Assembly: GCA_003279705.1 (NCBI GenBank)
Contig: QCGZ01000004.1
Span: 1 to 64,000 of the forward strand
Length of the DNA stretch: 64,000 nt
Direction of reading: 5' to 3'
Source of the DNA: OCS116 cluster bacterium AG-390-I16
GTDB taxonomy: Bacteria > Pseudomonadota > Alphaproteobacteria > MED-G09
Each line of letters opens with the position of its first letter. Within the stretch, counting starts at the first letter, position 1. Shown here one piece after another: positions 1 through 15,745 of the stretch. The translations under genes and the position numbers were made by a program. The notes below the pieces were generated by a model. That model was not told where the DNA came from and ran no database searches. It saw only the letters and a program-made list of their open reading frames with translations.

Positions 1-890
1 TCATTACATGAAGTAATTAATGAAAATCTTTTCTTTAAAATGTTAGTTAAATTTCGTTCATCATTATTTGGTATTAATTGATTATCAATCTTCACAACTG
101 GACAAATTATATGAGAGGAGGATGTAATGAAAACTTCTTTAGCATCCTTTAATTTATCTAATGTAATTTGACCTTCAAAAATTTTTATATTCTCATCACG
201 GGCGATTTCCAAGACACTTTTTCGAGTAATTCCATATAAAACCTGATTTTCATGAGCAGTTAATAAATTATCTTCGCCATCAACAATAAAAATATTTGAA
301 GTTGTTGACTCTGTTATATTTCCATTCTCATCTGTAAAAAATATTTCATCATAACCGTTTCTTCGAGCTTGCCATTTCGCCATCATCGATGATGTATAAT
401 TTCCAGCAATTTTTATTTGTGGTGGAATAATATCATTTCTTCTTTGATGTTTTTCTTTTTCTATCCAAACACTTAACTCTTTAAATTTATGAAAAGTTTG
501 AGTATTTTTTGAAATAATATCCTTTTGAGGATCATATACAGCAATTGCAACAGTGGAGAAAGGATCCTGAGGTACTACGTCTACTTCAACTGACGCAATA
601 TAAACACTTATTTTAATATATTTACTTCCTGGATTTTTTTTTACAGTATCCTTTATTGCTAATTTAATTTCATTTTCATTATAACTTATTGGAATTCCAG
701 CAGTTTCACATGAACTAAACAATCTCTTAACATGATCATGAAGACGAAAAATTGAAACCACTCCATCATTTTCAAAAATTGGAATAAACCCAAAAATAAG
801 AGAACCACGTTGATGAGAATGTGACAAAATATGGACATTAGCTTTTTCCCAATTCACATATTCACCATTTATCCAAATTTTTCTTTGCAA
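1..890 (-). CDS. Class IV (branched-chain / D-amino-acid type) aminotransferase, 3'-truncated by the window edge
   Basis: Own translation of the minus strand, absent from the ORF track: (TTG)LQRKIWINGEYVNWEKANVHILSHSHQRGSLIFGF...SSMMAKWQARRNGYDEIFFTDENGNITESTTSNIFIV...; class IV aminotransferase pattern. No in-frame ATG before the upstream stop, so a TTG start is inferred. Confidence 0.8.
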   Translation of the reverse strand, partial: MQRKIWINGEYVNWEKANVHILSHSHQRGSLIFGFIPIFENDGVVSIFRLHDHVKRLFSSCETAGIPISYNENEIKLAIKDTVKKNPGSKYIKISVYIASVEVDVVPQDPFSTVAIAVYDPQKDIISKNTQTFHKFKELSVWIEKEKHQRRNDIIPPQIKIAGNYTSSMMAKWQARRNGYDEIFFTDENGNITESTTSNIFIVDGEDNLLTAHENQVLYGITRKSVLEIARDENIKIFEGQITLDKLKDAKEVFITSSSHIICPVVKIDNQLIPNNDERNLTNILKKRFSLITSCN

Positions 891-940
891 ATGAATTACC
901 TTTAGTAAAGAATCAAATTTTAATTTAACCTAAAATTATA

Positions 941-1681
941 ATGTTTCAAATTCTTATAAATTCTTGGATTGGTATTGGTGTAGTAACGTTTCTTACTCTA
1001 CTTTTTATAAGCGCACCTTACGGGCGTCATATAAGGTCTGGCTGGGGACCTCTTCTGTCAAAAAGAATTGGGTGGATTTTTATGGAGACCCCTGCTCTTT
1101 ACATTATGTGGCTATTTTATTTTTTATATGCTGATTTTACCAATATTGTCTTGATAGTATTCTTATTCCTTTGGTCTATTCATTACACTAATCGAAGTAT
1201 TATTTGGCCTTTCTTAATTGATAAGAATGGCTCTATGCCTTTAATTGTAGCTCTTCTCGCTTTTATTTTTAATATTTTTAATGCTTCTTTTCATGGTTAT
1301 TGGTTCTTCTTTATGGATAATCAATATGAGGTTTCATGGCTTTTAAGCTCAAATTTCTTATTAGGTTTAAGTATTTTTATTTTAGGAATGGCAATAAATA
1401 TTCATTCAGATAAAATATTATTAAGGATATCAAAAGAGAAAAAAGGATATAAAATTCCCTATGGCGGTTTTTATAAGTGGATAACAAGTCCAAACTATTT
1501 AGGAGAAATTATTGAATGGATAGGATGGGCCATAATGACTTGGAGTTTATCAGGGTTTGTTTTTGCCCTTTGGACAACATTTAATCTTCTCCCAAGAGCT
1601 TTAAAACATCACTCATGGTATAAAGATAAATTTGATAATTATCCAAAAGATCGAAAAGCCATAATTCCGAAAATTTTATAA
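941..1681 (+). CDS. Steroid 5-alpha-reductase (SRD5A) family membrane protein
   Basis: C-terminal FYKWITSPNYLGEIIEWIGWAIMTWSLSGFVFALWTTFNLLPRALKHHSWYKDKFDNYPKDRKAIIPKIL matches the SRD5A1-type signature; several hydrophobic segments. Confidence 0.82.
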   Translation: MFQILINSWIGIGVVTFLTLLFISAPYGRHIRSGWGPLLSKRIGWIFMETPALYIMWLFYFLYADFTNIVLIVFLFLWSIHYTNRSIIWPFLIDKNGSMPLIVALLAFIFNIFNASFHGYWFFFMDNQYEVSWLLSSNFLLGLSIFILGMAINIHSDKILLRISKEKKGYKIPYGGFYKWITSPNYLGEIIEWIGWAIMTWSLSGFVFALWTTFNLLPRALKHHSWYKDKFDNYPKDRKAIIPKIL

Positions 1682-2614
1682 TTACCCGCCTGATGGTGTA
1701 GTTATATCATCATCAATAGGAACCCAATCTTGTTGTTTTACCCACTCACTAAAAGTGGTTAATTTAATTGGAATTTCTTCTAAAACATCCTCCATATCAA
1801 CCTTAAATGGATTTAGATTATCGGTGTTTTCGTTATTATACTCATAAAAACCCTGCATTGCAGCTATATAATCTTCCCTACCAATATCACTTACACCCTC
1901 AAAAATATCTGCCATGCGAATTGCAAACTCTTTTGGCGTTAATGTTTTAGGCTTTATTGATCTTCCAAGGTGTCCTGATAATGTATCAGCAATTCTTTGA
2001 GGAGTTAAAACTTCTGGCCCACCTATTACCATTGCCCTACCTATAAGGTCATCTCTTTCAAGTGAGGCAATCATAAATTTAGCAACGTCGTCTAAACAAA
2101 TCCAATTAGCTTGAAGCCCCTCTTTATGAGGATAAGCAAATTCATCATTTTCAATAATATCGTTTCTAGCCCACTTAGTTAAAGTATTGTCCATGAATAA
2201 TACTGGTCTGAAAATAGTTGTTCTTGCACCGCCTTGCTTTAAAGCTCTTTCAGTAGCTAAAACTCTATCATAATTATACTGACCAATTTCATCATCAGGT
2301 GCGTATGCAGCCGTTTGATATATAAGTCTTATATCTGCCCTTGCAGCAGCAGCTCCAACAGCAGCACAAAAATCAATCATTTTCGTAACTTGTTCAAATG
2401 AAGGTTTATTATAAAAAGCGGCATCAGATCCTTTTATCGCATTATCGAGGCTTTCAGGATCATTATAATCTGCTGAAACTTCAGTCACATTTTCATTTTT
2501 AAAAACACCTTTTTTTCTGGTGATAGCTCTTACTTGATAGCCGGCTAGCAATAATTGACGAACTTGTGCCTGCCCCATTCTCCCTGAAGCACCAAAAACA
2601 GTTACTAATGTCAT
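1682..2614 (-). CDS. NmrA-like / NAD(P)-binding Rossmann-fold oxidoreductase
   Basis: N-terminal VTVFGASGRMGQAQVRQLLLAGYQVRAITR dinucleotide-binding motif, NmrA-like layout. Confidence 0.8.
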   Translation of the reverse strand: MTLVTVFGASGRMGQAQVRQLLLAGYQVRAITRKKGVFKNENVTEVSADYNDPESLDNAIKGSDAAFYNKPSFEQVTKMIDFCAAVGAAAARADIRLIYQTAAYAPDDEIGQYNYDRVLATERALKQGGARTTIFRPVLFMDNTLTKWARNDIIENDEFAYPHKEGLQANWICLDDVAKFMIASLERDDLIGRAMVIGGPEVLTPQRIADTLSGHLGRSIKPKTLTPKEFAIRMADIFEGVSDIGREDYIAAMQGFYEYNNENTDNLNPFKVDMEDVLEEIPIKLTTFSEWVKQQDWVPIDDDITTPSGG

Positions 2615-2654
2615 AGAAATCCCCTTAGTCAGTTTAACTTATTTATTAAATAAC

Positions 2655-3419
2655 CTATCGGCCTGATAGTAATTTAACAAGCCATTTTGGGGTTATTTTC
2701 ATTAAAAAAACCAAAATTTTATAATGCCAACCATTTATAATTATTTCTTTACCAGACATTGAGGCTTCATATGCTTGCTCAACCACGGTTCTTGATTCCA
2801 TCCACATAAATGAAGGAATAGAACTTTTAAAATCCTTCATCTCTTTATGAAATTCAGTGTGCGTAAAACCAGGACATACAGAGCAAGAAAAAATATTCTT
2901 ATTTTTATAATCATTATGTATCATTTCTGAAAATTTTAAGAGCATTAATTTTGTAGCAATATACATTCCACCAGAATTTGTATAAGGAGCAAAAGCGGCA
3001 ACAGATGATATATTTATAATTCTTCCAAATTTTCTTTTTATCATTCCTGGTAAAAATAATCTTGTCAGTGCGATTGCTGAAGTAGACAAAACATTTATAA
3101 AATCTATATGATCCTTTAAAGATACTTCTTCAAAACTATCAGTTAATCCGTAACCAGCATTATTTATTAAAACATTAATTTGAATTTTGTTTTCTTCACA
3201 AAAATTATAAATTTCTTCAGTTGATTTTAAATCACTTAGATCACAAGAAATGATAAAAGCTTTTATTCCAAATTTATTGGTTAGGTTACTTTTAATTGCT
3301 TCTAAATTTTTTTCTCTTCTAGCAGTAAGGACTAAATCATAACCTTTCTCAGCAAATAAAGTTGCAAAATCTTTTCCTAGCCCAGAGGAGGCACCTGTTA
3401 TAAGTACAGTTTTATTCAT
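2655..3419 (-). CDS. Short-chain dehydrogenase/reductase
   Basis: TGASSGLGKDFA, NNAGYG and YIATK motifs. Confidence 0.88.
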   Translation of the reverse strand: MNKTVLITGASSGLGKDFATLFAEKGYDLVLTARREKNLEAIKSNLTNKFGIKAFIISCDLSDLKSTEEIYNFCEENKIQINVLINNAGYGLTDSFEEVSLKDHIDFINVLSTSAIALTRLFLPGMIKRKFGRIINISSVAAFAPYTNSGGMYIATKLMLLKFSEMIHNDYKNKNIFSCSVCPGFTHTEFHKEMKDFKSSIPSFMWMESRTVVEQAYEASMSGKEIIINGWHYKILVFLMKITPKWLVKLLSGR

Positions 3420-3431
3420 AAAAATCCTTAA

Positions 3432-4715
3432 TTAACGTTTTTCAAAAGTTAAATGAAGCTCTTTTAAACCTCTTAAGGCAAAGTGAGGATGGTGAAGAAA
3501 ATCATTCTTGTTCTCTGCTAGATTAATATTTTTTAAACGCTTTAATAATATATCAAAGGCCATTCTCATTTCCTGTCTAGCCAGCGGTGCGCCAATACAA
3601 TGATGATGGGAGATGCCGTAAGCAAGATGTTTTCCTGGATTTTTTCTTTCTAAGTCCATATGCATAGGACAACTAAACATTTCCTCATCTCGATTTGCAG
3701 AACCAAACCTCATATCAATTATTGAACCCTCAGGAATTGTTACATCGCCTATTGTTACATCTTTTCGAACTCTTCTAAAAAGACTTTGAACTGGTGTTTC
3801 AAGTCTAATAATTTCCTCCACAAAATTTTTAAGTTTTGATTTTCCGGTAATTAAATCATTAAGTTTTTCTTTCTGTTGCATCAAAATTAACATTCCACCA
3901 GCTATTGAGTTAGTAGTAGTTTCATTACCTCCAATATTTAATGCACTTACCATCGATAAAAGCTCTTCAGTAATTAATTGACTTCCATCTTCAAATTTAA
4001 AATTGACTAAGTCTGAGATAATATCTTCTTTTGGGTTTTTTCTTTTTTCTTCAAATGTCTTATTCATATAGTGCTGAAATTTAACTAATCTTTCTGCGCA
4101 TGCGATTTCTTCATCCTCTGTTAATCTTTGACTTAAACCCTCTGATGTATCAAAAGACCAAGCCTTTAACTTTGATAAATCCTTCTTTGGAAAACCTAAT
4201 CTATCTTGAATAATATTCATTGGTAGAGGGACACAAAATTGTGAAATAAACTCAACTTCACCATCATCAATAAAATCATCAATTAGTTCATTAATTAAAT
4301 CTTTAATATAAGGTTCCATTTTTCTTATCTTACTGGCTGTAAAGCTAGGGTTTGATGCTTTTCGAAATTTTGTATGATGCGGTGGTTCAGAGTCAAACGT
4401 TGCTATTTGGCTCCAACCCTTTTCTATGAAAACTTTTTTAACCTTTTCTCCATTCTTCCAATAACCATTCTTTTTATTTTCCTCTTTAATATCTTTATCC
4501 CAATACCCCGACAAATCTCTAGAAAAGAACTCATAGTCTGTTAAGACCCTTTTTAAATCGTTATATTTAGAAACAACAAAAAAACCAGTATCAGGACTTA
4601 AATAAATAGGAGCCTCTTCCCTTAAAAATTCATAAGCCTCATAAGGATTCTCTTGCAGATTAGGATCTAAGAAATTGATATCAGATAATTTAATTCTATT
4701 TTCTTTCATATTCAT
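3432..4715 (-). CDS. Cytochrome P450
   Basis: I-helix GGNETTT, ExxR (EEIIR), Cys heme loop AYGISHHHCIGAPLARQE. Confidence 0.92.
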   Translation of the reverse strand: MNMKENRIKLSDINFLDPNLQENPYEAYEFLREEAPIYLSPDTGFFVVSKYNDLKRVLTDYEFFSRDLSGYWDKDIKEENKKNGYWKNGEKVKKVFIEKGWSQIATFDSEPPHHTKFRKASNPSFTASKIRKMEPYIKDLINELIDDFIDDGEVEFISQFCVPLPMNIIQDRLGFPKKDLSKLKAWSFDTSEGLSQRLTEDEEIACAERLVKFQHYMNKTFEEKRKNPKEDIISDLVNFKFEDGSQLITEELLSMVSALNIGGNETTTNSIAGGMLILMQQKEKLNDLITGKSKLKNFVEEIIRLETPVQSLFRRVRKDVTIGDVTIPEGSIIDMRFGSANRDEEMFSCPMHMDLERKNPGKHLAYGISHHHCIGAPLARQEMRMAFDILLKRLKNINLAENKNDFLHHPHFALRGLKELHLTFEKR

Positions 4716-7700
4716 CTATCTTCTAGAGTGAATGCAATTAAGTGATCTGAGGCTGGAGAACCAACTGCCCAATGTCCTCCTGCAGCAATTACTACAAATT
4801 GTTTCCCATTCTTATTTGTATAAGTCATTGGTGTTGCATGACCAGCTGTTGGTAATCTAAATTTTGCTAGCTCTTCACCTGTTTCAGTCTTAAATGCTCT
4901 TAAATAATAATCACTGGTTGCTGCTATAAATGTCAAACCTGAAGCAGTAACTGTAGGACCACCTATATTTGGAGCTCCTTTGATCCACCAAAAAGGAAAG
5001 GGTGCTAAATCTTTAGATGTTCCTAACGGAATTTGCCATAAATGATCACCAGTATTTAAGTCGATTGCAGTAAGATTTCCCCAAGGGGGTTTAGTGCATG
5101 GAACCCCTAACGGAGACATAAATCCATAAGCTCTTATAGTACAGTATGGAGTCCCCTCATTTTGTTGTAATGCTGAAAATCTTGATTGAACACTATCTCT
5201 TGCTAATTCTTTAAGAGCTTTATCACAATCTTTCCTTGGAACCATTACTATTGTACTTGATAAATTCATTGTATTGGCAATAAGAATATTCCTGGATGCA
5301 TCAACTGCAGGACCTCCCCAATTTGCACCTCCTATTGCACTCGGATAGTGAACGCTTCCCTCTAAAGACGGAGGAGTATAAAGACCTTCATTTCTTAAAT
5401 CTTCTGCAGCTTTTTTACAATAACCCTTGTCCCAGGGAGTAAAACCAAAAACTTCTTCAGGATCTAAATAAGTTGGCGTCAAAGGAGCTGGTTTTGATGG
5501 GAAAGGCTGAGTTTTAGTAACATAATCACCCTCAACAGCACCTTGAGGAACCTCTCGCTCCTCTATAGGAAAAATAGGCTCACCTGTCTCTCTGTTTAAT
5601 AGAAAAATAAAACCCATTTTGGTTGTCTGTGCTAATGCTTTTATAACCTTTCCATCTTTTTCATAATCATAAAATGTTGGTTGAGAGGGAACATCATAAT
5701 CCCAAATATCATGATAAACTGTTTGAAAATGCCAAACAACTTCTCCTGTTGATGCATCTAAGGCTACTACAGAGCTAGAATAATAATCTGAACCGTTTCT
5801 ATGGCCACCATAATTATCTGCAGCGGTATTTCCTGTAGGAAGGTAAACTAAATTTAATTCAGGGTCAGTCGATATAATCGACCACACATTCGTTGTACCT
5901 CTTTGATATAATTGTTGTCCATCTTCATCAATTATAGGCTCTTGTCCTGGAGGTATTGGATCCCAATACCATATTAAATCACCTGTTTCAGTCTTAAATG
6001 CTCTTAAATAATAATCACTGGTTGCTGCTATAAATGTCAAACCTGAAGCAGTAACTGTAGGACCACCTATATTTGGAGCTCCTTTGATCCACCAAAAAGG
6101 AAAGGGTGCTAAATCTTTAGATGTTCCTAACGGAATTTGCCATAAATGATCACCAGTATTTAAGTCGATTGCAGTAAGATTTCCCCAAGGGGGTTTAGTG
6201 CATGGAACCCCTAACGGAGACATAAATCCATAAGCTCTTATAGTACAGTATGGAGTCCCCTCATTTTGTTGTAATGCTGAAAATCTTGATTGAACACTAT
6301 CTCTTGCTAATTCTTTAAGAGCTTTATCACAATCTTTCCTTGGAACCATTACTATTGTACTTGATAAATTCATTGTATTGGCAATAAGAATATTCCTGGA
6401 TGCATCAACTGCAGGACCTCCCCAATTTGCACCTCCTATTGCACTCGGATAGTGAACGCTTCCCTCTAAAGACGGAGGAGTATAAAGACCTTCATTTCTT
6501 AAATCTTCTGCAGCTTTTTTACAATAACCCTTGTCCCAGGGAGTAAAACCAAAAACTTCTTCAGGATCTAAATAAGTTGGCGTCAAAGGAGCTGGTTTTG
6601 ATGGGAAAGGCTGAGTTTTAGTAACATAATCACCCTCAACAGCACCTTGAGGAACCTCTCGCTCCTCTATAGGAAAAATAGGCTCACCTGTCTCTCTGTT
6701 TAATAGAAAAATAAAACCCATTTTGGTTGTCTGTGCTAATGCTTTTATAACCTTTCCATCTTTTTCATAATCATAAAATGTTGGTTGAGAGGGAACATCA
6801 TAATCCCAAATATCATGATAAACTGTTTGAAAATGCCAAACAACTTCTCCTGTTGATGCATCTAAGGCTACTACAGAGCTAGAATAATAATCTGAACCGT
6901 TTCTATGGCCACCATAATTATCTGCAGCGGTATTTCCTGTAGGAAGGTAAACTAAATTTAATTCAGGGTCAGTCGATATAATCGACCACACATTCGTTGT
7001 ACCTCTTTGATATAATTGTTGTCCATCTTCATCAATTATAGGCTCTTGTCCTGGAGGTATTGGATCCCAATACCATATTAAATCACCTGTTCTAATATTA
7101 TAAGCGCGAACAACTCCGCCAGGAACAGAGGTACTTACATTATCAGCAATACCCCCACCAACAACAACTACATCACCAATAATTGCTGGAGGAGAAACAC
7201 TATAATAATAAGCAGGATTATGTTGACCCAGACCATCTCTTAAATTCACTCTTCCATAATCTCCAAAATCAGCACAAAGTTTTCCAGTCTTTCCGTCTAT
7301 AGCAAAAAGTTCAGCGTCAATTGTTCCAGTAATAATCCGATGATAGCATTCTTCATTTTCAGATTTATTTATATCTATCCAGCTACCAACTCCTCTACAA
7401 TGAAGAAGTGCTTTTTGTTCAATTTCTACTTTGGGATCAAATACCCATTTCTCTTCTCCAGTTTCAGGGTCTAATGCAAAAACTCTGTTGTAAGGTGTGC
7501 AATAAAATAAAGTATCATTGACTAAAATTGGTGTTGCTTGGAATGATGTTTGCTGACTGCTGTTTGGTGTAACATCTTCAGTCCAATTCAAACCAGCATG
7601 AAAATCACCTGACCTATGTGTCCAAATTTTTTTTAAATTTTTTACATTTTCAGGTGTAATTTCATCAGCCTCAGAATAATGACCGCCACCAGAGTCTTTC

Positions 7701-7783
7701 CCATATGAAGACCAATCATCATTTTTTGCATTAAGTGATTGGTATGAGATAATAAAAATTAATATAAAAAGTATTCTAAGCAT
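4712..7783 (-). CDS. PQQ-dependent dehydrogenase (glucose/quinate dehydrogenase-like beta-propeller) with an internal 368-aa duplication
   Basis: PQQ propeller motifs (ALDASTGEVVWHFQTVYHDIWDYDVPSQPT). The track start at 7855 is probably too far upstream; MLRILFILIFIISYQSLNA at 7783 is a Sec signal peptide and removes the overlap with the next gene. Confidence 0.88.
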   Translation of the reverse strand: MLRILFILIFIISYQSLNAKNDDWSSYGKDSGGGHYSEADEITPENVKNLKKIWTHRSGDFHAGLNWTEDVTPNSSQQTSFQATPILVNDTLFYCTPYNRVFALDPETGEEKWVFDPKVEIEQKALLHCRGVGSWIDINKSENEECYHRIITGTIDAELFAIDGKTGKLCADFGDYGRVNLRDGLGQHNPAYYYSVSPPAIIGDVVVVGGGIADNVSTSVPGGVVRAYNIRTGDLIWYWDPIPPGQEPIIDEDGQQLYQRGTTNVWSIISTDPELNLVYLPTGNTAADNYGGHRNGSDYYSSSVVALDASTGEVVWHFQTVYHDIWDYDVPSQPTFYDYEKDGKVIKALAQTTKMGFIFLLNRETGEPIFPIEEREVPQGAVEGDYVTKTQPFPSKPAPLTPTYLDPEEVFGFTPWDKGYCKKAAEDLRNEGLYTPPSLEGSVHYPSAIGGANWGGPAVDASRNILIANTMNLSSTIVMVPRKDCDKALKELARDSVQSRFSALQQNEGTPYCTIRAYGFMSPLGVPCTKPPWGNLTAIDLNTGDHLWQIPLGTSKDLAPFPFWWIKGAPNIGGPTVTASGLTFIAATSDYYLRAFKTETGDLIWYWDPIPPGQEPIIDEDGQQLYQRGTTNVWSIISTDPELNLVYLPTGNTAADNYGGHRNGSDYYSSSVVALDASTGEVVWHFQTVYHDIWDYDVPSQPTFYDYEKDGKVIKALAQTTKMGFIFLLNRETGEPIFPIEEREVPQGAVEGDYVTKTQPFPSKPAPLTPTYLDPEEVFGFTPWDKGYCKKAAEDLRNEGLYTPPSLEGSVHYPSAIGGANWGGPAVDASRNILIANTMNLSSTIVMVPRKDCDKALKELARDSVQSRFSALQQNEGTPYCTIRAYGFMSPLGVPCTKPPWGNLTAIDLNTGDHLWQIPLGTSKDLAPFPFWWIKGAPNIGGPTVTASGLTFIAATSDYYLRAFKTETGEELAKFRLPTAGHATPMTYTNKNGKQFVVIAAGGHWAVGSPASDHLIAFTLEDR
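4875..7091 (-). repeat. Tandem direct repeat, 2 x 1104 bp, apparently identical, inside the PQQ dehydrogenase gene
   Basis: TCACCTGTTTCAGTC at 4875 and 5979 and TCACCTGTTCTAATA at 7083; both spacings are 1104 bp. Intervening DNA reads identically in both copies by eye. Confidence 0.93.
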
Positions 7784-7791
7784 AAAATATC

Positions 7792-9753
7792 CTAATTGTT
7801 TTTGGGAAGTGTAAAGGCAATCAAATGATCTGAAGCTGGCGTTCCAATAGCCCAATGTCCTCCTGCAGCGATTACAACAAACTGTTTACCTTCTTTATTA
7901 GTATAAGTCATAGGTGTTGCGTGTGCACCTGTGGGAAGTCTGAACTTAGCAATTTCTTCACCTGTTTCAGTATTGAAAGCTCTTAAGTAATGATCACTTG
8001 TAGCACCTATAAAGGTTACTCCGGATGCAGTAACTGTAGGACCTCCCATATTTGGAGCTCCTTTAATCCACCAAAAAGGGAAAGGTGCTAAATCTTTAGA
8101 AGTTCCTAGTGGAACATTCCATAAATGTTCACCAGTATTAAGATCAACTGCAGTTAATGTTCCCCAAGGAGGCTCAGTACATGGTACACCTAAAGGAGAA
8201 AAGAAACCCATCGAACGAAGATTGCAATATGGAGCACCCTCATTTGATTCAATATTAGTAAATCTAACTTGGTTTTTATTAATTGAGAGCTCTTCAAGAG
8301 GTTTAGCACAATCCTCCCTAGGAATCATAACTATCAAACTAGCCATGTTATTTGTATTAACAACCATGATATTTCTTTTTGAATCGACAGCAGGTCCTCC
8401 CCAATTATTTCCACCAACACCACTAGGATAATGAATACTTCCTTGAAGAGAAGGAGGTGTAAATAGACCTTCATTCCTCAATTTCTTCGCTGTTCTCTTA
8501 CAATGACCTCGGTCCCAAAAAGTAAAGCCAAAAGCTTTATCAGGATCAAAATATGTAGGATTTAAAGGTGCTGGTTTAGATGGAAAAGGTTGAGTTTTAC
8601 TAACATAGTCCCCTTCGATAGCTCCTTGAGGAACCTCTCTTTCTTCAATTGGAAAAATGGGCTCACCTGTTTTCCTGTTCAGTAGAAAAGTAAGCCCAGT
8701 TTTTGTTGTTTGTGCAAGCGCTTTTATAATTTTTCCATCTCTTTGAAATTCGTAAAAAGTTGGTTGAGACGGAACATCGTAATCCCAAATATCATGATGA
8801 ACTGTTTGAAAACTCCAAACTAATTTTCCTGTATCGGCATTTAAAGCGACAACAGAGCTTGAATATTCTTCAAGACCTTCTCTATGGCCACCATAGTAGT
8901 CAGGAGATGCATTTCCAGTAGGAAGGTAAACCATATTTAAATCTGGATCAGCTGATATTATTGACCAAACATTTGCCGTTCCTCTCCTGTATAATGGATT
9001 ACCATTATCATCTAAAATAGTTGCTTCATCAGGAGGAATTGGATCCCAATACCAGGCTAATTCCCCTGATCTTATATCAAAAGCTCTTACCACACCCCCA
9101 GGAATGTCTATTGATAAATTATCAATAACACTTCCACCTACTACAATTTTTTCATTGATGATTGCTGGTGGAGAAGTGCTCCAATAATATAAAGCAGGAT
9201 GTTCACCGAGTCCTTCTCTTAAATTTACTCTTCCATTATTTCCAAAACCCTCACAAAGTTTTCCATTCTTACCGTCTATTGAGAAAAGTTCCGCATCAAT
9301 GGTAACGCCCATTATTCTATGATAACAACTATCAGAGGGTAACTTTGTTTCATCTTTCCAGCTACTTAAACCTCTGCAAGCTAAAATTGCTCTACCATCT
9401 TTTTTAAGCTTAGGATCAAAAACCCACTTTTCTTCTCCAGTTTCAGGATTAAGAGCAAAAACTCTATTGTAAGATGTGCAATAAAATAATGTATCATCAA
9501 CTAAAAGAGGTGTTGCTTGAAAGGATGTTTGATATTCTCCACCTTTTACGCCCGCAGAATTTGCTCCACCTTTATAATCACCCGACCTATGAACCCATAC
9601 TTTTTCTAACTTTCCAACATTTTCAGGGGTTATTTCATCTGCTTTTGAAAAATGTCCTCCACCAGATCCTTTGCCATAAGCTGTCCAATCATCGGTCGCA
9701 GAAAAAACTGGGTTTATAAAGAAAATAGTAAGAAGAAGAAGAAGAAAACGCAT
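7792..9753 (-). CDS. PQQ-dependent dehydrogenase (glucose/quinate dehydrogenase-like), paralog of the adjacent gene
   Basis: Signal peptide MRFLLLLLTIFFINPVFSA and the same propeller motifs; 653 aa, normal length for the family. Confidence 0.9.
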   Translation of the reverse strand: MRFLLLLLTIFFINPVFSATDDWTAYGKGSGGGHFSKADEITPENVGKLEKVWVHRSGDYKGGANSAGVKGGEYQTSFQATPLLVDDTLFYCTSYNRVFALNPETGEEKWVFDPKLKKDGRAILACRGLSSWKDETKLPSDSCYHRIMGVTIDAELFSIDGKNGKLCEGFGNNGRVNLREGLGEHPALYYWSTSPPAIINEKIVVGGSVIDNLSIDIPGGVVRAFDIRSGELAWYWDPIPPDEATILDDNGNPLYRRGTANVWSIISADPDLNMVYLPTGNASPDYYGGHREGLEEYSSSVVALNADTGKLVWSFQTVHHDIWDYDVPSQPTFYEFQRDGKIIKALAQTTKTGLTFLLNRKTGEPIFPIEEREVPQGAIEGDYVSKTQPFPSKPAPLNPTYFDPDKAFGFTFWDRGHCKRTAKKLRNEGLFTPPSLQGSIHYPSGVGGNNWGGPAVDSKRNIMVVNTNNMASLIVMIPREDCAKPLEELSINKNQVRFTNIESNEGAPYCNLRSMGFFSPLGVPCTEPPWGTLTAVDLNTGEHLWNVPLGTSKDLAPFPFWWIKGAPNMGGPTVTASGVTFIGATSDHYLRAFNTETGEEIAKFRLPTGAHATPMTYTNKEGKQFVVIAAGGHWAIGTPASDHLIAFTLPKNN

Positions 9754-10682: not shown

Positions 10683-12230
10683 TTAATTAGGATTATTTTT
10701 TTCTCTCTTTATAATTAATCTATTTAAAGCTGCAATATAAGCTCTTGCAGAAGCGACGAGTGTATCCGTATCAGCTCCTCTACCTACAACTGTTTTACCA
10801 TCCTCATGTAAACGAACACTAACCTCAGCTTGCGCGTCAGTTCCTTGAGTTACAGCATGAACTTGATATAGCTGAAGGTTAGCATTATGAGGAAAAAGAT
10901 TTTTAATTGCATTAAATATAGCATCAACTGGACCAGAACCTTCTGATACGCTTGATATCTCTTTATTATCTATTTCAATTGATAAATCTGCAATTTGCGG
11001 TCCAAAAGTGCCAGCCTCAATTTTAAGTGAAATTAATTTTATATGATCCAAACTCGTAGAAAACTCATCATCAATAATTGCTATGATATCGTCATCAAAA
11101 ATTTCCTTCTTTTTATCTGCTAAATCTTTAAATCTATAAAATGCATCATTTAATTGATTGTCAGCAAGTTCATACCCAAGTTCAAATGCTTTTTCTTTAA
11201 AAGCATGGCGACCAGAATGCTTACCCATAACAAGAGTTGATTCACTTAAGCCAATACTCTCAGGGGTCATAATTTCATATGTTTCATTATTTTTAAGCAT
11301 ACCATCCTGATGAATTCCGGATTCATGTGCAAAAGCATTCTTTCCAACAATAGCTTTATTATATTGAACAGGAAACGAGGTTACTGATGAAACTAACCTA
11401 GAAGCCCTTGTAAAAAGAGTAGTATCAACTTTAGACTCATAATTTAATATATCTTTTCTTACTTTCATTGACATAACCAATTCTTCAAGAGCAGCATTGC
11501 CTGCGCGCTCTCCAATTCCATTCATAGTACATTCAATTTGTCTTGCTCCCGCCCTTACACCAGATAAAGAATTAGCAACTGCTAAACCAAGGTCATTATG
11601 ACAATGAGTTGAAAATGTAACTTTATCAGCTGAGGGTACATTATTAATTAATGAATCAATAATTTCAAAATATTCCTCGGGAGTTGTGTAACCAACTGTA
11701 TCGGGAATATTTATAGTTGAGGCTCCTGATGAAATAGCAGTCTCGACACATTTAAAAAGAAAATCTCTATCCGTTCTAGTTGCATCCTCAGCTGACCACT
11801 GTACATCCTCTACTAGATTTCTAGCTCTTGAAACTGAACGTTGAATGGCATCAATAACCTGATCCTCATCCATTTGTAGTTTAAATTTCATGTGTATTGG
11901 ACTTGTTGCTATAAATGTATGAATACGAGGGTTAACAGCATGTTTTACTGCTGCTCCTGCTCTATCAACATCTTTATCTCCAGCCCTAGCTAAACCGCAA
12001 ACTTGAACGTTTTTAACAACTTTAGAAACCTCTGACACAGACTCAAAGTCACCCTCAGAAGCAATAGGAAAACCAGCCTCAATAATATCAATGCCCATAG
12101 TATCAAAAATTTCAGCTATTTGAATTTTTTCACTCAATGACATTGAAGCCCCAGGAGATTGCTCTCCATCCCTAAGGGTCGTATCGAAAATTTTAATATA
12201 ATTACTTGTTTTGATCATTTTTATCTCCAA
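10683..12230 (-). CDS. leuA: 2-isopropylmalate synthase
   Basis: [36 protein letters not shown]-terminal LeuA allosteric domain. Confidence 0.97.
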
Positions 12231-13487: not shown

Positions 13488-14003
13488 TTAATTTTTTGAA
13501 CCACGAGCAATTGCAGCTAAACCAGTTCTTGATATATCGTTCAACCCTAATGGACGCAAAAGGTCAATAAATGAATTAATTTTATCCATTGCTCCTGTCA
13601 ATTCAAAAACAAATGATTTATCAGTTGTATCAACAATTTTTGCTCTATAAATTTCTACCAACCTTAAAATTTCTTCTTTATTTTGATTAGTATATAATAC
13701 TTTTATTAATGCCATTTCTCTCTCTACTGAAGGTCCTTCTATAGTAAGATCTGTTACTTTATGAACTGGAACAAGTCTTTCCAAATGGTTCTTTATTTGA
13801 TCAATTGTTTTTGGACTTCCTTTTGAAACAATTGTAATTCTTGAAGTATGAGAGTCTTTATCCACTTCAGCAACAGTTAGACTTTCAATGTTATATCCCC
13901 TTCCTGAAAAAAGGCCAATTACCCTTGCTAATACACCAGCCTCATTATCTACAAGCAAAGAAAAGGTATGAGTTTCTTGAATATCTTCTTTAATTGTAAT
14001 CAT
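13488..14003 (-). CDS. ilvN: Acetolactate synthase small subunit
   Basis: ACT domain: HTFSLLVDNEAGVLARVIGLFSGRGYNIESLTV. Confidence 0.97.
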   Translation of the reverse strand: MITIKEDIQETHTFSLLVDNEAGVLARVIGLFSGRGYNIESLTVAEVDKDSHTSRITIVSKGSPKTIDQIKNHLERLVPVHKVTDLTIEGPSVEREMALIKVLYTNQNKEEILRLVEIYRAKIVDTTDKSFVFELTGAMDKINSFIDLLRPLGLNDISRTGLAAIARGSKN

Positions 14004-15745
14004 ATCAAAACCTTTCCTTCATCACCAACTTCTATTGATATACCCTCATCATTCAAAAGCATCTCATTATGCCCAGCGCCAGAAGGAATCATTGGGTAAC
14101 AATTTTCATCTTTATCAACTACACAATCAAAAATCACAGGTAAATCAGTATCAAGCATTTCTATAATCTTATCATCTAGTTCTTTAGGGTTTTGAGCTCG
14201 AATCCCATGGGCGCCATAGGCTTCAGCTAATTTTACAAAATCGGGAAGAGAGTCTGTATAAGAGTGAGAATATCTTCCGCCATGAAGCAGCTCTTGCCAT
14301 TGTCTAACCATGCCCATGTATTGATTATTTAGAATGAATATTTTAACCGGTAATTTATGCTGAACAGCTGTTGATAATTCTTGCATGTTCATTAAAATTG
14401 ATGCTTCTCCAGCAATATCAATAACAGTTGATTTTGGGAAAGCAACTTGAGTACCTATTGCAGCAGGAAGTCCATACCCCATTGTACCCAATCCCCCAGA
14501 TGTCATCCATCTATTAGGCTCATTAAAATGATAATGTTGAGCAGCCCACATTTGATGTTGACCAACCTCAGTACTAATAAAAGTATCCTTATCTTTTGTT
14601 AATTCATATAATCGCTCAATAGCATATTGAGGTTTAATTGTTTTTTCAGATTTTATATAATTCAGAGATTTAATATCTCTCCAATTATTTATTTGATCCC
14701 ACCATTTTGAGGTATCAGATTTATAACCTTTTGATCTCCACAAAATAAGCATATTTTCTAATACATGCGCACAATCACCTATTACAGAAACATCAACATC
14801 AATGGTCTTGTTAATTGAAGTAGGATCAATATCAACATGTATTTTTTTTGAATTTGGAGAGAACGCATCTAAGCGACCAGTAACTCTGTCATCAAATCTT
14901 GCGCCAATGTTAATGATTAAATCACTATCGTGCATAGTCATATTTGCCTCATATGTCCCATGCATGCCCAGCATACCAAGCCATTGATCATTGTTAGCAG
15001 GAAAAGCACCTAAACCCATTAATGTAGATGTAATAGGAAAACCAGTTAAATTAACAAATTCTTTTAAAAGATGGCTGGCCTCAGGTCCAGAGTTTATAAC
15101 TCCACCACCAGTATAAAAAACAGGTTTCTTTGCTTTCGACATTAATTCTACAGCCTGTTCAATTTCAAAAATTTCTGGTTTTACCTTTGGCTTATAACTT
15201 GAATGCTCAACTTCAGACATAGAACAATATTCTGCATCAGCAAATTGAACATCTTTAGGAATATCAATAAGAACAGGTCCAGGCCTTCCAGTAGTAGCCA
15301 CCAGGAATGCTAAATGAATTGTTTTCGCCAAATCCTCAGGTCTTTTCACCAACCAATTATGTTTGGTACAAGGCCTTGTAATACCTACTGTATCACATTC
15401 TTGGAAAGCATCTGTTCCGATTAAATGACTTGGAACCTGACCAGAAATACAAACTAACGGAATAGAGTCCATTAAGGCATCAGTTAGACCGGTAACAGCA
15501 TTTGTAGCACCTGGACCAGAAGTAACAAGAACAACACCTGGTTTACCAGAAGACCTTGCATACCCCTCAGCTGCATGAACTGCGCCTTGTTCATGACGAA
15601 CTAAAACATGAGCAGGAGCTTTATTACTTTTAAATAATTCATCATACAAAGGTAAAACTGCGCCTCCAGGATAACCAAAAATATGATCTACACCCTGTTC
15701 GTTTAAAGCTTTTACTATTACCTCTGCACCAGTCATTTTAGTCAT
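14000..15745 (-). CDS. ilvB: Acetolactate synthase large subunit
   Basis: ThDP enzyme: GADVIVKALNEQGVDHIFGYPGGAVLP-type N-terminus, RHEQGAVHAAEGYARSSGKPGV. Confidence 0.97.
   Translation of the reverse strand: MTKMTGAEVIVKALNEQGVDHIFGYPGGAVLPLYDELFKSNKAPAHVLVRHEQGAVHAAEGYARSSGKPGVVLVTSGPGATNAVTGLTDALMDSIPLVCISGQVPSHLIGTDAFQECDTVGITRPCTKHNWLVKRPEDLAKTIHLAFLVATTGRPGPVLIDIPKDVQFADAEYCSMSEVEHSSYKPKVKPEIFEIEQAVELMSKAKKPVFYTGGGVINSGPEASHLLKEFVNLTGFPITSTLMGLGAFPANNDQWLGMLGMHGTYEANMTMHDSDLIINIGARFDDRVTGRLDAFSPNSKKIHVDIDPTSINKTIDVDVSVIGDCAHVLENMLILWRSKGYKSDTSKWWDQINNWRDIKSLNYIKSEKTIKPQYAIERLYELTKDKDTFISTEVGQHQMWAAQHYHFNEPNRWMTSGGLGTMGYGLPAAIGTQVAFPKSTVIDIAGEASILMNMQELSTAVQHKLPVKIFILNNQYMGMVRQWQELLHGGRYSHSYTDSLPDFVKLAEAYGAHGIRAQNPKELDDKIIEMLDTDLPVIFDCVVDKDENCYPMIPSGAGHNEMLLNDEGISIEVGDEGKVLI

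What the first reader, a model, noticed from the sequence alone, without database searches (positions are those of the whole stretch)
4875..7091. Perfect in-frame 1104-bp tandem duplication inside a PQQ dehydrogenase
The same 1104 bp (368 codons) occurs twice head-to-tail with no difference I can see. All three boundaries share TCACCTGTT (4875, 5979, 7083), a 9-bp microhomology. Removing one copy gives about 655 aa, matching the 653-aa neighbour. The encoded 1023-aa protein would carry several extra propeller blades. This is either a very recent slippage or unequal recombination event, a population variant, or an assembly error.
Basis: partly seen in the sequence, partly recalled or inferred. 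Interest (0 to 1): 0.7.

Follow-up and report, generated by a model that had tools for sequence, protein, structure and literature searches.

The report
Duplicated half-propeller, probably amplification chimera
A stretch of 1,104 bases inside a sugar/alcohol-dehydrogenase-type gene of an uncultured marine bacterium appears twice, letter for letter, but no relative has this and the same assembly holds another false-looking join, so it is more likely a DNA-amplification artefact (or else a very recent, ordinary copying accident) than a new enzyme.

Summary
Window 4875-5987 equals 5979-7091 (1113 bp, offset 1104, no mismatch), and the three boundaries share TCACCTGTT. The unit runs from one propeller W-motif turn (residue 232) to another (residue 600) of a 655-aa PQQ dehydrogenase. 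It carries four of eight motif intervals in frame and gives a 1023-aa ORF with one hybrid motif.

No relative has it: all orthologs and paralogs in the genus, the family and a genome-wide scan are single-copy. The nearest relatives differ by 6-9% in the unit.

The new evidence concerns the assembly. Another contig of this genome, C13, ends in an exact 1372-bp inverted copy of its own start. The join has a 6-bp microhomology and breaks two genes whose counterparts lie 15-30 kb apart in relatives. That fits the published signature of multiple-displacement-amplification (MDA) chimeras. Contig order also resembles the genus's single-cell assemblies. I slightly favour an amplification chimera walked twice by the assembler (0.52) over a real, very recent microhomology-mediated duplication (0.43). 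A functional enlarged enzyme is unlikely. Reads would settle it.

The parts
4712..7783 (-). PQQ-dehydrogenase gene A as assembled, 1023 aa, with signal-peptide-like N-terminus
   Evidence: ORF; Pfam PF01011 far above cut-off
5979..7082 (-). Unit copy read first in the gene (about aa 234-601)
   Evidence: exact match at offset 1104; codon positions
4875..5978 (-). Unit copy read second in the gene (about aa 602-969)
   Evidence: exact match at offset 1104
7083..7091 (-). Original microhomology site 1 (W-motif RTGD, aa 231-234)
4875..4883 (-). Original microhomology site 2 (W-motif ETGE, aa 967-970 of the long form; aa 599-602 of the single-copy form)
5979..5987 (-). Junction microhomology; the sequence across this point was found in no relative
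   Evidence: junction string absent from viral contigs
5954..6004 (-). Hybrid W-motif RAFKTETG|DLIWYWDPI created by the junction (aa 594-610)
7792..9753 (-). Tandem paralog B, 653 aa, single-copy; carries the same 9-mer at 7958 and 8663

Best explanation
The second copy is most likely not in the organism's chromosome. During whole-genome amplification of a single cell, a displaced 3' end that had copied the gene to one W-motif re-annealed through the 9-nt string TCACCTGTT (AACAGGTGA on the gene strand) at another W-motif of the same gene and was extended again over sequence already copied, giving a direct-orientation chimera. The junction created a loop in the assembly graph, and the assembler walked the same 1.1-kb node twice, so the copies are identical by construction. 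Shown: exact identity, microhomology, absence in all relatives examined, and an independent chimera-like junction in the same assembly. Inferred: that this genome is a single amplified genome, and that the loop was walked on a minority junction.
For: (1) Contig C13 ends in an exact 1372-bp inverted copy of its own first 1372 bp. The junction truncates a PhoR-like histidine kinase and an MFS gene, has a 6-bp A-run overlap, and joins pieces that are colinear and 15-30 kb apart in G003, G004 and G007. In an MDA study, 85% of chimeras were inverted and over 70% were primed at 2-21 nt of complementarity; direct ones under 10 kb apart exist (11 of 475), 91% of them with complementarity (PMC1855051). 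Single-cell assemblies of Prochlorococcus contained 7 chimeric contigs each (PMC2731171). (2) The contigs scanned in G000 are numbered by decreasing length, as in the genus's known single-cell genomes G004 and G008, while the two MAGs sampled (G002, G009) are not. A 23S/5S rRNA gene set sits inside a contig and contamination is 0.02%; both fit a single-cell genome. (3) A known single-cell relative, G008, holds a comparable partial-gene direct duplication: an exact 930 bp repeated 2715 bp on, with a headless P450 copy. (4) No relative has the duplication. (5) The 9-bp match is perfect only in this genome among the four nearest; the three nearest relatives each have one mismatch.
Against: The source of the assembly is not stated, so a single-cell origin is inferred. 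Short-range direct MDA chimeras are rare (11 of 475), and only one inverted junction was found in 94% of the genome. The duplication lies inside a 67-kb contig, not at its end. The ORF stays open and the join falls in exact structural register.
Confidence: 0.52

Rival explanations
1. A real, very recent tandem duplication in this cell's lineage. Replication slippage or illegitimate recombination between two copies of a 9-bp string in the W-motif codons duplicated four blade-equivalents in frame. It is probably neutral or harmful, buffered by paralog B, and prone to collapse by recombination between its identical copies.
For: The event used a 9-bp microhomology (chance 7e-5 for a random breakpoint pair). 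It is in frame, and both breakpoints lie in equivalent beta-hairpin turns of the ortholog model (strands 225-229/235-239 and 592-597/603-608). Zero differences in 1104 bp bounds divergence below 0.27% (below 0.8% at third positions), against 6% to the nearest relative. No second direct repeat of this size exists in 94% of the genome.
Against: The same assembly carries another chimera-like junction. Exact 1.1-kb tandem copies are not normally resolvable by short reads (own knowledge). The in-frame property is unremarkable.
Confidence: 0.43
2. A retained, functional enlarged PQQ dehydrogenase (twelve motif intervals), either with an enlarged ring or with an eight-bladed ring plus a half-propeller appendage.
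For: The frame is open with signal peptide and C-terminal end intact. Local blade amplification in differentiated propellers is documented (8% of a set of recently amplified propellers, PMC9218822).
Against: Found in one genome only. No sequence adaptation between copies. The model of the long form is poor (mean pLDDT 51 against 83 for the single-copy ortholog), though its alignment covered copy 2 only by the query itself. The largest propellers known are 12-bladed, and those form by oligomerisation.
Confidence: 0.03
3. Unequal crossing-over between tandem genes A and B made the duplication.
For: A and B are adjacent paralogs and share the 9-mer at the same motif.
Against: Both copies are 100% A sequence; B is about 75% identical over the unit. 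A crossover between A and B would give an A/B hybrid, not an internal repeat of A.
Confidence: 0.01

Closest known systems
MDA chimeras (phi29 template switching; PMC1855051, PMC2731171)
   Same: Microhomology of 2-21 nt at the junction, segments under 10 kb apart, one junction per event; the same genome has an inverted junction of the commoner type
   Different: Short-range direct (duplication-type) junctions are the rare class; most would not be expected to survive in the middle of long contigs
RecA-independent, short-homology tandem duplications in bacteria (own knowledge)
   Same: Head-to-tail, exact copies, 9-bp homology at both ends, unit about 1 kb
   Different: Presence in cellular DNA not shown
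Local amplification within differentiated beta-propellers (PMC9218822)
   Same: Blade-register duplication inside an otherwise diverged propeller; lineage-specific
   Different: Four blade-equivalents copied as a block, 100% DNA identity, no evidence of folding or retention
PQQ-dependent dehydrogenases (PF01011; glucose/quinate-type TIGR03074)
   Same: Full-length match and W-motifs; HDIWDYDVPSQP and TTKMG stretches resemble the active region of E. coli glucose dehydrogenase (own knowledge, not tested)
   Different: No N-terminal membrane domain; half of the propeller present twice in the assembled form

Membership tests
PQQ-dependent dehydrogenase (PF01011) | Match to the beta-propeller profile above the curated cut-off | tested here: met
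   1228.6 bits for the 1023-aa form (inflated by duplication) and 753 for paralog B, against a cut-off of 26.7; the ortholog model finds PQQ alcohol/methanol dehydrogenases in PDB
Membrane-bound PQQ dehydrogenase subfamily (TIGR03074) | Score above 832.65 with the N-terminal membrane domain | tested here: not met
   Single-copy paralog B scores 713.5 and the match starts at profile position 153 of 783; the long form (1116) passes with two matched stretches, i.e. through double counting
MDA chimera | Junction with short complementarity joining segments not contiguous in the genome | tested here: met
   9-bp junction; relatives lack it
MDA chimera | Other chimeric junctions in the same library, mostly inverted | tested here: met
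   C13 terminal 1372-bp inverted copy with 6-bp overlap, both genes broken
MDA chimera | DNA was amplified by MDA | tested here: inconclusive
   Assembly type not named; length-sorted contigs, rRNA in contig and low contamination fit a single-cell genome
MDA chimera | Junction depth below flank depth in reads | not testable with these tools
   No reads available
In-vivo microhomology-mediated tandem duplication | Head-to-tail copies with homology at the ends, absent in relatives | tested here: met
In-vivo microhomology-mediated tandem duplication | Present in cellular DNA | not testable with these tools
   Needs reads, PCR or a second genome of the same strain
Recently amplified beta-propeller | Extra blades in register within one open frame | tested here: met
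   Breakpoints in equivalent hairpin turns of the ortholog model; hybrid motif in frame
Recently amplified beta-propeller | The enlarged protein folds | tested here: inconclusive
   Model mean pLDDT 51, pTM 0.50, with one-sided alignment coverage

The most novel reading that the evidence does not exclude
A cell lineage of an uncultured marine alphaproteobacterium carries a half-propeller amplification at zero divergence: an expressed PQQ dehydrogenase enlarged from eight to twelve W-motif intervals by one slip between W-motif codons, a natural snapshot of how propellers change blade number.
Probability: 0.06. Interest if true: 0.5.

Novelty: not a real feature. Interest (0 to 1): 0.2.

Why it matters
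If real, it would show a propeller changing blade number in one step, with the conserved W-motif codons themselves supplying the microhomology and the frame. If an artefact, it is a clean warning: a chimera formed between conserved repeat motifs yields an open, in-register, plausible long protein that passes gene calling and a curated profile cut-off (here TIGR03074, through double counting). Repeat-protein surveys that include single-cell genomes should check exact internal duplications against reads.

Tried and rejected
Crossover between paralogs A and B: rejected, the unit is pure A sequence. In-frame status as evidence of selection: dropped after the control showed 56% in-frame repeats in ordinary genes. 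An apparent multi-kb repeat on contig C10 was a counting error of mine: seeds at one offset were summed; the real runs are 50-96 bp in paralogous RTX-like genes. Structure of the 1023-aa form: alignments kept placing relatives on one copy, so the second copy stayed almost uncovered and the low-confidence model is not interpretable. Junction string in viral contigs: none, uninformative. pqqC search: nothing found anywhere, controls included, so no conclusion. Plasmid collection: only relatives below 60% identity.

Full report
OBSERVATION. The repeat is exactly as described. At offset 1104 the window matches itself without a mismatch from 4875 to 5987 (second copy 5979-7091; 1113 bp), and identity falls to background on both sides; TCACCTGTT stands at 4875, 5979 and 7083. 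The gene is on the minus strand (ATG at 7783, stop at 4712): 1023 aa as assembled, 655 aa with one unit. Upstream lies a 653-aa paralog, about 75% identical in DNA over the unit.

WHAT THE UNIT IS. The protein is a PQQ dehydrogenase (PF01011). The closest named NCBI subfamily is TIGR03074, but without its N-terminal membrane part, and the single-copy paralog falls below that subfamily's cut-off. Eight W-motif-like turns can be read in the 655-aa form (my reading of the sequence). The unit runs from the fourth (aa 232, RTGD) to the eighth (aa 600, ETGE), so it carries four intervals, and the junction makes one hybrid motif, RAFKTETG|DLIWYWDPI. In an AlphaFold model of the single-copy ortholog of G008 (mean pLDDT 83), which resembles solved PQQ alcohol and methanol dehydrogenases, both breakpoints fall in the turn of a beta-hairpin: strands 225-229/235-239 and 592-597/603-608. 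The insertion is thus in structural register. The eight-bladed count itself is inferred from family knowledge and motif count, not measured on the model.

RELATIVES. Searching the whole genus (10 genomes) and family (18) gave only single-copy genes; full-length frames are 652-689 aa and the only longer frame is this one. A scan of 85,462 species genomes and an ORF survey of the loci found no gene with an internal duplication of this kind. Some distant homologs have longer frames, but these carry N-terminal extensions and a single match. The nearest relatives differ from the unit by 6.0% (G001), 8.6% (G004) and 8.4% (G008), while the two copies differ by 0 of 1104, an upper bound of 0.27%. The organism belongs with OCS116/PS1-clade alphaproteobacteria judging by the titles of its relatives.

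MECHANISM OF THE JOIN. The chance that random breakpoints in this gene share 9 bp or more is 7e-5, so annealing at this string is part of the mechanism. The string encodes the conserved T-G-D/E of the W-motif. It is perfect between the two sites here; in G001, G004 and G008 one of the nine bases differs. Being in frame is not remarkable: 8-bp-or-longer repeat pairs are in frame in 64% of cases in this gene and 56% in fifteen control genes.

CELL OR TEST TUBE. Exact 1.1-kb tandem copies cannot usually be phased by short reads, and assemblers can write a graph loop twice (own knowledge). I therefore looked for other traces of chimerism. In 1.05 Mb (94%) of the genome there is one other long exact repeat: contig C13 ends in a 1372-bp exact reverse complement of its own beginning. 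At that junction a PhoR-like kinase and an MFS gene are both cut. In G004, G007 and G003 the two sides lie on one contig, colinear, 15-30 kb apart, and the join shows a 6-bp A-run overlap. This fits the published signature of MDA chimeras: 85% inverted, over 70% primed at 2-21 nt of complementarity, direct short-range cases 11 of 475 (PMC1855051). Seven chimeric contigs were found in each of two Prochlorococcus single-cell assemblies (PMC2731171). The scanned contigs of G000 are numbered by decreasing length like the known single-cell assemblies G004 and G008, and unlike the MAGs G002 and G009. Large-subunit rRNA sits inside a contig. A known single-cell relative, G008, has its own partial-gene direct duplication. 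None of this proves that the PQQ junction is an artefact, but it makes an artefact at least as likely as a real event.

VERDICT. I put 0.52 on an amplification chimera walked twice by the assembler, 0.43 on a real and very recent microhomology duplication, and a few per cent on a functional enlarged enzyme. The novelty label follows the first of these; if the second is right, the label would be 'new member of a known kind'. The long-form structure prediction (mean pLDDT 51) cannot decide, because the alignment covered essentially one copy only. If real, the case is a further example of local amplification in propellers, already documented (PMC9218822), unusual in copying four blade-equivalents at once and in having no divergence.

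LIMITS.

Noticed in passing
Own genome contig C13 (L112:1-1372; L168:6268-7639): Contig end is an exact 1372-bp inverted copy of the contig start, with a 6-bp overlap, cutting a PhoR-like kinase and an MFS gene: a probable amplification chimera.
   Followed up: yes
Own genome C13, about 19.9-26.27 kb (L168) against G004:C2 (L196): About 6.3 kb is 99.8-100% identical to another species' genome (G004) although flanking DNA is mostly 85-95% identical: recent homologous recombination between species, or cross-contamination between single-cell libraries.
   Followed up: partly
L236 (G008:C16) 11231-12160 and 13946-14875: Exact 930-bp direct repeat 2715 bp apart (continuing imperfectly for a short way) that leaves a headless second copy of a cytochrome P450 gene: duplication or amplification chimera in a known single-cell genome.
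   Followed up: partly
L109 (own C10) 120-5895: Three neighbouring large secreted-type genes share a C-terminal domain with exact stretches of 50-96 bp at offsets 2913 and 1657, suggesting a recently amplified paralog cluster.
   Followed up: no
Own genome and genus: Several PQQ-dehydrogenase-type genes but no pqqE above the curated cut-off in any of 10 genus genomes; possible dependence on external PQQ. Control genomes also gave none over the cut-off, so absence is not shown.
   Followed up: partly
window 4712-9753 and relatives G001, G004, G008, L024, L025, L027, L034: A and B PQQ-dehydrogenase genes are kept as a tandem pair in several species, while in G002, G005, G006 and G009 they lie on different contigs.
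   Followed up: no
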